This document shows positions 40,383-53,517 of a stretch of DNA of 64,000 nt, piece after piece. Each line of letters begins with the position of its first letter. Position 1 is the first letter of the stretch. Below the pieces are notes generated by a model, which saw only the letters and a list, made by a program, of their open reading frames with translations, had not been told where the DNA came from and made no database searches. The position numbers were made by a program, and so were the translations under genes. The stretch comes from Heligmosomoides polygyrus polygyrus (taxonomy: Eukaryota > Nematoda > Chromadorea > Rhabditida > Heligmosomidae). The stretch covers positions 72,760,643 to 72,824,642 of the forward strand of contig OX377202.1 in NCBI GenBank assembly GCA_947396885.1. Direction: 5' to 3'.

Positions 40383-40818
40383 AGTCATAAGAGGCCTTCC
40401 GCCTCTAAGTGCTTCTGCCGATAGTCGATAGAGAATACAGGTTTATCTGCATAAGTACAGGCAAGAAGCAATATGGATCAGATCGACGAAGGCGCAGTGG
40501 GGCGTGTGGAGAGGTGACGGGAGACGGAGTCGGCAGATGGTGGAAGTCGGGTTGTGGGTTCGGGCTCGTAGCGACGGCGTGCAGCCGTCCGCCGGTCAGA
40601 CGTCCATTCGATTGCCTCGTCCACGGAGCTCCTCCTGTAAATACGAGCATCGGTTACGGTAGTATGATGGAATGCATGAGTAATAGGAGATAGAAGCATG
40701 AGATATAAGAGGCTTAGCTGGTGCTACAGTAGTTTAGCGTGGGAAAGTAATGTGCCACTAAGGTAGGGTTACGGTAAGCTATCCTACCACTAGGAAGCGT
40801 GGGACACGATTCCTTACA
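40383..40818 (-). repeat. 3' LTR (436 bp)
   Basis: In element orientation it begins TGTAAGGAATCG and ends CTTATGACT. Against the other LTR I count five substitutions, all transitions, and one single-base indel, about 1% divergence, so the insertion is comparatively recent. Confidence 0.95.
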
Positions 40819-40830
40819 CCTTCCCTCATC
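40819..40830 (-). promoter_or_regulatory. Polypurine tract
   Basis: GATGAGGGAAGG on the minus strand lies immediately before the 3' LTR start (TGTAAGG), the expected site for plus-strand DNA priming. Confidence 0.75.
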
Positions 40831-40979
40831 AAAACACGACCGACCCGGGCGTGCCCATTATCAAAACGATCCCGGGGAAATGTAGGGAACCGATGGCTAC
40901 GAATATATGCAAAACAAAAAAAAACAAAAAAAAACTCACTGTCAACTGGTGTTGTGGTGGTTGTCGTCGATGGCGATCT

Positions 40980-42760
40980 TCACGGGAAGCAGTCGACCAG
41001 CTCGCAGGGCCTGATAATCGCGTCGCGAGCTCGCGCCCATCGGATGAGTCGCCCCCAGTTCGGCAGGCGGGTCAGGGGACGCTCGTGGCCTAGAATGATA
41101 AGGCCATGCTTGCTGCGTGTGATGGCCACGTTCATCCGTCGAGGATCGTCCAGGAACTCTGCGCGGTCAGCCTCGAAGTGCGACCTCGTGGTGAGAAGGA
41201 TCACTATGTCCTTCTCGCGGCCCTGTACGGAGTCGACCGTGTAGAGGTCGATTCCCTGGTTCTGGGCGTAGCTTTCCATGCACCTGTACTGCTCTTTGTA
41301 GAAGGTGATGATCGCTATCGATTCCGGCCGGATCGCGGTGCCAAGCAGCAGGCGTATGGTGTCGCGACATGCCTGGGCCTCCGAAGTGCTGTAGTGGGAC
41401 CCTGTCGCCGTTCGCTGAGAGTACCCAGCTACCTTCACAGACAGGAAGGGCAGCTTGCGGTTGCGGCACCTCGTGTTGTCGAGGAACAGGCGTCGGGTCT
41501 CTGCAGTCGTTCCGCTGATCAAGGTGTTCTCGTAGAACAGCCGGTTCGGCATGGCGTTCGATTCCGGGTGCGACCGGAACGTCGTGGTCAGCGGCGCCAT
41601 CGGGATCCTTCTTTGGACTAGAAGATCCATCACTCCCAGTGCTCCGAATTTAGCCGGGGTGGACTTTCGGCTACAACGGATGTGGGGTTCCAGCTGGTGT
41701 ACATCGCCGATGTATACATGGCGGGCGTCTGGAACACGAGTCGCAATGGCGACCATCGCGGGCTCTGGAATCTGTGAGGCTTCATCGCCAATAATGGTCG
41801 TGAACTCGGACGACAGTTCATTAAAGATTCCTCCGCTGTCGGTGGCGTTGAGCAGAGCGGACGTCGTCAGGCAGATGATGGCGGGCGTCCGGACCCTGAA
41901 CATGATGGCGATCACCTTCGTGGCGATGCGTGAAACCTCCTTTTCAGCAAGGCGGTACTCCTCGCGCTCGTCCTGACTGAGGAAAAGCGCGTCGTCGGGG
42001 TGAAACAAGAGACGCTCGATCAGTTCTCGACCTCTGCTGAACGTCTCGCACAGTGCCATTTCATCATCAGTGAGCACGTGCGCGTAATCCGTCGAAAGGC
42101 GCTTCAGAATGGTGTGCATAACGTTGACGGTTGTCGGTGCTCCCTCTGTGAGTGCTGTATCAGACACGTAGCGAAGGAGGGTCAAGTCGCGAAATTCGTC
42201 GAGCTTCATGATCGTGTCCGTGAACTGTGCGACGGCGGTGTTGGTCGTGGACGTGGCGATGACCCTGTGCGTTTTGTCGGCTCGAGCTACCCTTGCGGAG
42301 ATGAGGGCGCCGACTACAGTCTTTCCTGTTCCATATGCAGCCTGAAAGCCTACCACTGGATATCGTCCTTCGCCGAGACGAATTGCTGCGAGCTGTTCCG
42401 GGCGGAGTGTAATGGAATTACCTGCAATAGACACGACCGCATTTTCGGGTAAGCAACCAGCAGGCCGATAATTATGCTGGGCGCCTCCGTAGACCATGTC
42501 TAAAAGGTCTGCTGCGACAGATCGATCAGTCGGCGAGAAATCCTCGAACAGCTTCGACGACGAAATGATGTCGTATACTGGATCAGCTCCTGTCGGCGCC
42601 CATCCGAGCTTGACGCAGACCGTCACCTTCACGATGCCATCCTTTGGAACCTGCGCACCGCGCCGAGCGTGCCGCGATGGGCGTACGATGGGACAGCTAC
42701 GCGGACGTGGATTCGCTGGCTTCTGGATGATCGCTCGGCATAGCGATTGGGCGCCTACGA
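40980..42760 (-). CDS. Upf1/Mov10-type superfamily 1 helicase domain in an LTR retrotransposon
   Basis: An ATP-dependent 5'-3' RNA/DNA helicase domain by family. The open frame runs 42863-40980 (627 codons), though its first 40 or so codons are out of phase with the upstream protein. Motifs are complete, numbered from 42863: Q-like 'ITLRPEQLAAI' (151-161), Walker A 'AYGTGKT' (176-182), Ia 'ATSTTNTAVAQF' (203-214), Walker B 'IIGDEASQ' (357-364), III 'GDVHQLEP' (386-393), IV region 'TTTFRSHP' (426-433), V 'YTVDSVQGREKD' (541-552) and VI 'DPRRMNVAITRSK' (573-585). 'DEASQ' and 'TVDSVQGRE' point to the Upf1-like group rather than Pif1 or Rep. It lies between integrase and the 3' LTR. The stop is 149 bp before the PPT. 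The role in the element is unknown. Confidence 0.9.
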
Positions 42761-52080: not shown

Positions 52081-53065
52081 AGGTTCCCTCCGCGTAATGT
52101 CCTTCCTGTGAAAGCATCTGGTGGGAAGAAATGAGCCGAGCTTATCTGATTGCTCGGGCGGCTTGCAAAAACATGGGAGTCACATTTCACGCGACTCTCG
52201 CTGAGATGGACTCTGAGATAAGCGCAAGGGAATACCACGACTGCTTAAAATAAACAAATTTGAATATTTTCCATACCGTACACTAAATTCGAATTTTTAC
52301 TATCCGACGAACCGAAAAAAAAACGTCTGAGGGGGGGGGGGTAGGTAACTTCCTTAACGTTCACGAATCCTCGAACTGTCGCCCTCGGGCGACTGGCGGA
52401 GCGACCGCCTTCTCAACCTGGGAGTACTCCTTACCGTGACATAGCCACCAAACGGGCTTTTACCTCATCTGCGCACCTCTGCGCTATCTCTCGATTTCCT
52501 GCTCGAACATTTCTCAAATAATCGGTCAGCAGGCCCCCGGGGGAAAATTCCATCTTCCTCTCGTCAAACCCTAGTGGTCGACCGTTTTAAACTGCGCTCA
52601 CCGCTCGAACGGCTTCGCATGCGTTCGAGCGCACAAAGACAAATTGGACACAAAGAGTCCTTTGATTACCGGCTTGCGCGACTTGAGTTCGGAGCGCATG
52701 TGCTGGTCCATAGAATTTAGTTCTGAAGGCACAAAAGGAGGCTCGCCGCCTGGTCTGAGATCAGCTCGTGAGCTTTTGAAATTGCTGCACAAAGAGGACC
52801 TCATGAGAGAAGCGCTCTCCGAATTCAAATCGCGCGAAACTTAAACTGGGCATGACTACGCCACTAACGTCTAACTAGGTGCACCTATACAGAAAAAAAA
52901 AACCGTCCCTAAGATCTCGAACTTACGTTGGAAAGCCTAACGTCGCTGACGATCTCCTGGCCAGGAAACATATGTCTAGCGAGCGCTCAGCAGAGCGAAA
53001 ACTTACAAAAATTTGACGGAAAAGAAACCCTTACAACCTACCGTACTGCCGTCGTCCTCCACGTC
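52081..53065 (-). other. 5' leader of the LTR element
   Basis: About 1 kb between the primer-binding site and Gag, with no supportable ORF. It contains a G9-type run at about 52331 and a stem-loop at 52602-52631, listed separately. It would hold the packaging signals of the genomic RNA. Confidence 0.6.
52602..52631 (-). promoter_or_regulatory. Leader stem-loop with palindromic GCATGC
   Basis: A perfect 10-bp stem (cgctcgaacg and cgttcgagcg) encloses a 10-nt loop whose edge forms the self-complementary GCATGC (52617-52622). In retroviral leaders such palindromic loops can promote RNA dimerisation. Function here is inference. Confidence 0.4.
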
Positions 53066-53081
53066 GAGCTCGCTGCTACCA
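53066..53081 (-). promoter_or_regulatory. tRNA primer-binding site
   Basis: On the minus strand the sequence directly after the 5' LTR reads TGGTAGCAGCGAGCTC, sharing its first T with the LTR end. TGG at this position pairs with the 3' CCA of a tRNA. The priming tRNA was not identified. Confidence 0.75.
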
Positions 53082-53517
53082 GTCATAAGAGGCCTTCCGC
53101 CTCTAAGTGCTTCTGCCGATAGTCGATAGAGAATACAGGTTTATCTGCATAAGTACAGGCAAGAAGCAATATGGATCAGATCGACGAAGGCGCAGTGGGG
53201 CGTGTGGAGAGGTGACGGGAGACGGAGTCGGCAGACGGTGGAAGTCGGGTTGTGGGTTCGGGCTCGTAGCGACGGCGCGCAGCCGTCCGCCGGTCAGACG
53301 TCCATTCGATTGCCTCGTCCACGGAGCTCCTCCTGTAAATACGAGCATCGGTTACGGTAGTATGGATGGAATGCATGAGTAATAGGAGATAGAAGCATGA
53401 GATATAGGAGGCTTAGCTGGTGCTACAGTAGTCTAGCGTGGGAAAGTAATGTGCCACTAAGGTGGGGTTACGGTAAGCTATCCTACCACTAGGAAGCGTG
53501 GGACACGATTCCTTACA
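53081..53517 (-). repeat. 5' LTR (437 bp)
   Basis: Same sequence as the 3' LTR apart from five transitions and one extra G ('agtatggatgg'). It supplies the promoter for the element. It is flanked outside by ATAT (53518-53521). Confidence 0.95.

What the first reader, a model, noticed from the sequence alone, without database searches (positions are those of the whole stretch)
40383..53517. Gypsy-type LTR retrotransposon encoding a Upf1/Mov10-like SF1 helicase
The helicase domain (42760-40980) lies inside one LTR-bounded unit with target duplication, PBS and PPT, downstream of integrase and on the same strand. All SF1 motifs are present, with Upf1-type 'DEASQ' and 'TVDSVQGRE'. Ty3/Gypsy elements normally encode no helicase. 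Upf1/Mov10-like helicases (for example C. elegans ERI-6/7) act in RNA surveillance and silencing of retroelements and viruses, so an element-borne one could aid RNA handling or reverse transcription, or blunt silencing. The structure is read from sequence; the role is inference.
Basis: partly seen in the sequence, partly recalled or inferred. Interest (0 to 1): 0.92.

Follow-up and report, generated by a model that had tools for sequence, protein, structure and literature searches.

The report
Nematode retroelement carrying UPF1-like helicase
A retrovirus-like jumping element in a parasitic roundworm carries, besides its usual genes, a membrane-fusion gene and a helicase related to the RNA quality-control protein UPF1, and related elements in other roundworms carry a similar helicase, so it is probably a working part of the element rather than a stray host gene.

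Summary
A minus-strand Ty3/Gypsy-type element (40383-53517; LTRs differ by 5 transitions in 436 sites; ATAT duplication) carries an SF1 helicase ORF (40980-42863) downstream of protease-RT-RNaseH-integrase. It is not one captured transcript: relatives (34-58% identical) occur across strongylid nematodes, and 7 of 49 element-type helicase proteins are gene models that also hold gag, env, protease, RT or integrase sequence, always upstream. Motifs are mostly kept (GTGKT 30 of 33, DEASQ 26 of 31). Thirteen placed on a tree form one clade (100/100) on a very long stem. Sequence and fold are UPF1-type; UPF1's UPF2-binding CH domain was not found. MOV10 kinship was not testable.

New here: Gag is fused in frame to a class III fusogen (rhabdo/nyavirus- and gB-like), between gag and protease; the one precedent I met is planarian Burro.

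Most likely role (inferred): an accessory protein, perhaps from a spliced mRNA, that handles the element's own long RNA, as retroviruses borrow host UPF1. This copy is decayed (one stop, several frame breaks). The window's own genome could not be searched (tool unreachable).

The parts
53081..53517 (-). 5' LTR (437 bp)
   Evidence: 98.6% identical to the other LTR
40383..40818 (-). 3' LTR (436 bp)
53518..53521 (.). target duplication ATAT, right
40379..40382 (.). target duplication ATAT, left
53068..53081 (-). primer-binding-site-like TGGTAGCAGCGAGC (initiator-Met-like by recall, not tested)
40819..40827 (-). polypurine tract GAGGGAAGG
51301..52179 (-). gag, N-terminal part (an in-frame stop separates it from the next ORF in this copy)
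   Evidence: stretches 85-98% identical to Heligmosomoides polygyrus P0057/P0058
49663..51300 (-). gag C-terminal part with CCHC zinc knuckle, fused in frame to the start of a class III fusogen (env)
   Evidence: zf-CCHC 3.5e-7; env homologues; class III fold in relative P0049
49350..49628 (-). env, middle part in another frame
48223..49224 (-). env C-terminal part with a hydrophobic stretch (transmembrane-like by eye), followed by the aspartic protease
   Evidence: gag-asp_proteas 0.0023, below the curated cut-off
47765..48619 (-). protease continuation in another frame
   Evidence: 97% over 77 aa to P0048; 40% over 144 aa to P0032
45605..47560 (-). reverse transcriptase, RNase H, integrase H2C2 domain
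   Evidence: RVT_1 7e-23, RT_RNaseH_2 2e-25, Integrase_H2C2 1.1e-16
44700..45650 (-). integrase core (frame-split; no Pfam hit of its own)
   Evidence: position after H2C2 and catalytic-type residues by eye; a relative, P0066, has a sub-threshold rve match, 0.009; 52% over 105 aa to the upstream part of P0016
44552..44558 (-). candidate 3' splice site TTTTCAG after a pyrimidine run, between integrase stop and helicase ORF
   Evidence: inferred, untested
43301..44884 (-). helicase protein, proline/serine-rich and N-terminal conserved region (homology about 43610-44110)
42697..43344 (-). helicase protein, middle region (frame-shifted in this copy)
40980..42863 (-). UPF1-like SF1 helicase core
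   Evidence: AAA_12 1.2e-38; UPF1 2.4e-32; 58% to Nippostrongylus P0001

Best explanation
Best supported: the helicase is a gene of the element itself. A strongylid lineage of retrovirus-like Gypsy elements has the order LTR - gag fused to class III env - protease - RT - RNaseH - integrase - UPF1-like helicase - LTR (seen whole in the window copy, link by link in relatives), and has mostly kept the helicase motifs while its proteins diverged to 34-58% identity. Inferred: the helicase ORF is expressed from its own spliced mRNA, like retroviral env or the cerv mRNA of Cer1, and the protein binds and remodels the element's own unspliced 13-kb RNA. It would escort that RNA through export, translation and packaging while not recruiting UPF2, since no UPF2-binding domain was found, so that the RNA is shielded from nonsense-mediated decay and related surveillance. 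In effect the element would carry the UPF1 service that retroviruses such as HIV-1 recruit from the host. I put an element-encoded, long-retained UPF1-like ATPase at about 0.9, and this particular mechanism at about 0.5.
Against: No expression, binding or activity data. The splice site is a consensus match only; TTTTCAG-like words occur 17 times on this strand of the element, though I judge this one's pyrimidine run the longest by eye. The window copy is decayed, so it cannot make the protein described. Each relative shows only one link of the gene order, in automatic gene models; 42 of the 49 show none. Many A2 rows lack the N-terminal part, so the CH-domain negative rests on 12 long proteins (P0008 and P0064 being models of one gene). 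UPF1_1B (PF18141) is not matched either, although the fold alignment spans that region. In the second structural comparison Ighmbp2 ties with UPF1. The stem to UPF1 is very long (3.2-3.4 changes per column) and the tree tool warns of long branches, so the exact donor is unsure. dN/dS could not be measured, because no second DNA copy could be fetched (genome search did not complete).
Confidence: 0.55

Rival explanations
1. Counter-silencing decoy: the helicase acts on the host. A UPF1-like core without the CH domain competes with host SMG-2/UPF1 or with RNAi helicases (ZNFX-1, ERI-6/7) for RNA or partners, damping decay or small-RNA silencing.
For: No CH domain found. Strongylid LTR elements are targets of small RNAs bound by exWAGO in Heligmosomoides and others (PMC13195028, passages including the abstract), so there is pressure to counter it. 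Divergence between relatives (34-58% identity) would fit an arms race.
Against: ATPase motifs are mostly kept, whereas a pure decoy could lose them. No specific kinship to ZNFX1 (106.3 against 176.6 bits); ERI-6/7 and MOV10 not tested. No data on host effects.
Confidence: 0.25
2. Replication helper: the helicase is packaged and unwinds structured genomic RNA or displaces strands during reverse transcription of the long (13 kb) element.
For: Encoded by the same unit, with an intact SF1 core in this copy. A long genome of 51-58% GC might profit from unwinding. SF1 helicases were captured by insect LINEs (PMC5563155, passages).
Against: It lies behind the integrase stop with its own upstream splice-site-like signal, not in gag-pol, so packaging would need another route. 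Other Gypsy elements are known to reverse transcribe without one (recall).
Confidence: 0.15
3. One captured host transcript or a host helicase gene next to a retroelement, with no role.
For: The window copy has broken frames, and automatic gene models can join neighbours wrongly.
Against: Helicase behind other element parts in four genera and consecutive tags in A. ceylanicum. Listed hits outside the family at most 37% identical. Motifs mostly kept across the family.
Confidence: 0.04

Closest known systems
Burro giant Gypsy-like elements of planarians (PMC6431247, passages)
   Same: Gypsy-type; env in frame between gag and pol, with hits to mononegavirus fusion glycoproteins; extra domains
   Different: The passages seen list midasin, BIR, BCL2, ankyrin, dUTPase and other domains, and no SF1 helicase for Burro; elements over 30 kb against 13 kb here. 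Kinship of the two pol genes was not tested.
Cer1 of Caenorhabditis (PMC10309623, passages)
   Same: [quoted passage not shown] spliced mRNA from TTTCAG sites; the accessory protein CERV is needed for genomic RNA export
   Different: CERV has no obvious homology outside Caenorhabditis according to the paper; 'helicase' occurs nowhere in its main text
Insect TRAS and Jockey-like LINEs with SF1 helicase domains (PMC5563155, passages)
   Same: Retroelement with a captured, motif-conserved SF1 helicase
   Different: Non-LTR elements; the helicase resembles that of virga-like plus-strand RNA viruses, not UPF1
Anakin BEL-Pao elements with chuvirus glycoprotein (PMC7642597, passages)
   Same: LTR element with a fusogen captured from a negative-strand RNA virus
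   Different: BEL-Pao family; no helicase named in the passages seen
Orchid Gypsy elements with an AlkB RNA demethylase (PMC9289625, passages)
   Same: Gypsy lineage that fixed an RNA-acting host-type enzyme in an extra ORF
   Different: Different enzyme; plant host; 'helicase' occurs nowhere in its main text
UPF1 / NAM7
   Same: SF1 core in sequence and predicted fold
   Different: No CH-domain or 1B match by Pfam; 29-37% identity for the non-family hits listed

Membership tests
Ty3/Gypsy (Metaviridae) LTR element | two near-identical LTRs with a short target duplication | tested here: met
Ty3/Gypsy (Metaviridae) LTR element | order protease-RT-RNaseH-integrase | tested here: met
   protease hit below the Pfam cut-off, H2C2 clear, integrase core by position and homology only
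Ty3/Gypsy (Metaviridae) LTR element | RT groups with Gypsy RTs on a tree | not tested
   only Pfam RVT_1/RT_RNaseH/H2C2; no reference RT set to hand
errantivirus-like order gag-pol-env | env downstream of pol | tested here: not met
   env lies between gag and protease
class III fusogen | sequence and fold of gB/rhabdovirus G type | tested here: met
   [not shown]
UPF1 | SF1 core motifs with UPF1 as nearest relative | tested here: met
   Ighmbp2 ties by VIA Z
UPF1 | N-terminal CH zinc domain that binds UPF2 | tested here: not met
   by sequence: PF09416 in 0 of 38 rows and 0 of 4 further long relatives; control P0068 4.7e-46. 12 of these proteins are long enough to show it. Fold comparison did not test the N-terminal part
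UPF1 | 1B domain (PF18141) | tested here: inconclusive
   no Pfam match, but the fold alignments begin at UPF1 residue ~290 and so span it
MOV10 / ERI-6/7 | groups with MOV10 or ERI-6/7 on a tree | not tested
   no protein of that name was among those returned and listed

The most novel reading that the evidence does not exclude
Strongylid nematodes host a lineage of endogenous-retrovirus-like Gypsy elements that made two captures: a class III fusogen from a rhabdo/nyami-like RNA virus, welded in frame to Gag, and a UPF1 helicase stripped of its UPF2-binding domain. They use the latter as their own decay-proof RNA escort against NMD and exWAGO-type small-RNA control.
Probability: 0.35. Interest if true: 0.92.

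Novelty: new variant of a known kind. Interest (0 to 1): 0.8.

Why it matters
Nothing in the listings I saw describes an LTR retrotransposon with a UPF1-type helicase (searches: open-licence papers only; six of these listed only the top of larger sets, so this is no proof of absence; passages of 8 papers seen). Retroviruses recruit host UPF1; an element that brings its own version would be a natural experiment on what retroviral RNA needs from UPF1, and on whether UPF2 binding is what harms it. It sits in worms whose LTR elements are known targets of a secreted Argonaute (PMC13195028). The in-frame Gag-fusogen fusion would add a second lineage, after Burro, for env between gag and pol.

Tried and rejected
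Rejected: stray host gene or single capture; nested LTR element (no inner boundary repeats of 40 nt or more); viral (+)RNA helicase origin as in LINEs (UPF1 176.6 bits against 19.7 for coronavirus nsp13; the viral-contig scan, which finds close relatives only, gave 2 pattern matches and no relative; the phage search gave 1 record, 25.6% over 44%). ZNFX1 as nearest relative: scored lower. MOV10 is not listed among PDB matches, which excludes nothing. Trees: I picked 45 rows from the listed hits plus the window (13 element, 17 UPF1-type, 8 IGHMBP2-type, 7 unclassified). In that tree an unnamed long-branched protein, P0120, falls beside the element clade (97/83), so UPF1 being the direct sister is not certain; holding element+UPF1 together against the rest was not rejected (p-AU 0.325). 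In one search, 8 rows were dropped (the 7 unclassified, 3 of them long-branched, and P0125): the 13 element rows stay one clade, but UPF1 is not one side of a branch in the best tree (one clade not rejected, p-AU 0.363), and with IGHMBP2 as the only other group that tree says little about the donor. P0032 and P0033 have identical helicase alignment figures and may be one locus, so the 7 linked models may be 6 loci. Two of the 41 proteins (P0030, P0041) fell below the cut for 'element-type' (34% identity and 100 bits) and are not in the 49. Led nowhere: Rfam (no match), tRNAs (none), other copies of the element in the window (only itself and its LTRs).

Full report
WHAT IS THERE. The unit 40383-53517 is an LTR element on the minus strand. 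Its LTRs (437 and 436 bp) differ by 5 transitions in 436 sites and one indel. ATAT flanks both sides. PBS-like and polypurine sequences sit inside the LTRs. Pfam finds a CCHC knuckle, RT, RNase H and the integrase H2C2 domain; the protease is a sub-threshold match, and the integrase core is read from its position and its homology to a relative. The last ORF, 40980-42863, is an SF1 helicase with the expected motifs. The 2-kb bins over the element are 51-58% GC; the rest of the window is 41-49%, apart from 16-22 kb at 51-55%. It has no other copy in the window.

STATE OF THIS COPY. One in-frame stop divides gag; env, protease, integrase and the helicase protein upstream of its core change frame. 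Decay or assembly error cannot be told apart here. Long uninterrupted helicase models exist in relatives (P0059, P0060, P0064).

HOST. Stretches of gag, env and protease are 72-98% identical to Heligmosomoides polygyrus proteins P0048, P0057 and P0058; another protein of that species, P0056, is only 31-56% and belongs to another family of elements. So the window most likely comes from a Heligmosomoides species (inference).

IS THE HELICASE AN ELEMENT GENE? The helicase search returned 41 proteins among 7997 scored candidates, 34-58% identical; the 40 that bear a name are all strongylid nematodes (Nippostrongylus, Ancylostoma, Haemonchus, Heligmosomoides, Oesophagostomum, Cylicocyclus, Trichostrongylus). 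A second search with the C-terminal core of P0001 adds more of these and one from Heterorhabditis at 40%; it found 242 proteins, of which the best 120 are listed. Of the 159 proteins gathered are of the element type by a BLAST cut of 34% identity and 100 bits. Seven of the 49 also match upstream parts of the element, always N-terminal to the helicase: P0001 RT (89% over 140 aa), P0016 integrase, P0032 protease, P0033 gag and env, P0036 gag, P0057 gag and env, P0066 integrase. These are automatic gene models that run across neighbours, each showing one link; taken together they put the helicase behind the other genes in four genera. P0044 (gag-env, Y032_0120g931) and P0065 (helicase, Y032_0120g930) of A. 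ceylanicum have consecutive locus tags and the same longest-contig length, 600675; their orientation was not seen. The other 42 of 49 carry no such match and say nothing either way.

HOW IT MAY WORK. Between the integrase stop (44700) and the helicase ORF lies CCTTTCTTCCTTTTCAG, a good nematode 3' splice site by eye; 17 words of the type TYYYCAG occur on this strand of the element, so the match alone is weak. Cer1 makes its cerv mRNA with TTTCAG sites, and CERV is needed for export of genomic RNA (PMC10309623, passages). HIV-1 uses host UPF1 but excludes UPF2 for the same step (PMC4693258, passages). An element-borne UPF1 core lacking the UPF2-binding domain fits the same job. This step is inferred. 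Acting against the host's decay or small-RNA pathways, or helping reverse transcription, are the main rivals.

LIMITS. The own-genome search did not complete (15 tries), so copy number, dN/dS and the LTR context of other copies are untested. RT phylogeny, MOV10 and ERI-6/7 were not tested. The statement about print rests on nine searches of open-licence papers, seen as listings; six of them showed only the top of a larger set. Passages, not whole papers, were seen of eight papers.

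Noticed in passing
window 38158-39771: Inverted repeat with 333-nt arms, 98% complementary, 948 nt apart, with a 200-base run of N inside (38509-38708): looks like a DNA transposon next to the element. The N-terminal 43 residues of H. polygyrus model P0058 match 39038-39166 plus strand at 65%.
   Followed up: partly
window 10488-13247, 17007-17972, 19186-21718: Broken LINE-like ORFs (Exo_endo_phos, RVT_1) on both strands.
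   Followed up: partly
window 34614-35156: ORF with the HTH_48 domain of Mos1-type transposases, 5.8e-6.
   Followed up: no
window 24988-25274 and 30664-30868: Two arrays of the same 41-bp tandem repeat, about 5.4-5.5 kb apart.
   Followed up: no
P0013 (Nippostrongylus): Gene model joins this helicase to PUA/SUI1-type domains (PF01472, PF01253; eIF2D-like by recall), perhaps because an element copy lies beside that gene.
   Followed up: no
P0051-P0054: A second, more divergent Gag-fusogen lineage (35-38% to P0049); P0052 and P0053 are from Ancylostoma, the other two unnamed.
   Followed up: no
P0005, P0006, P0064, P0065, P0067 against the window's group: The element helicases fall into about two deep groups, each with Haemonchus and Ancylostoma members, which suggests the helicase was present before these genera split; the split itself is weakly supported.
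   Followed up: partly
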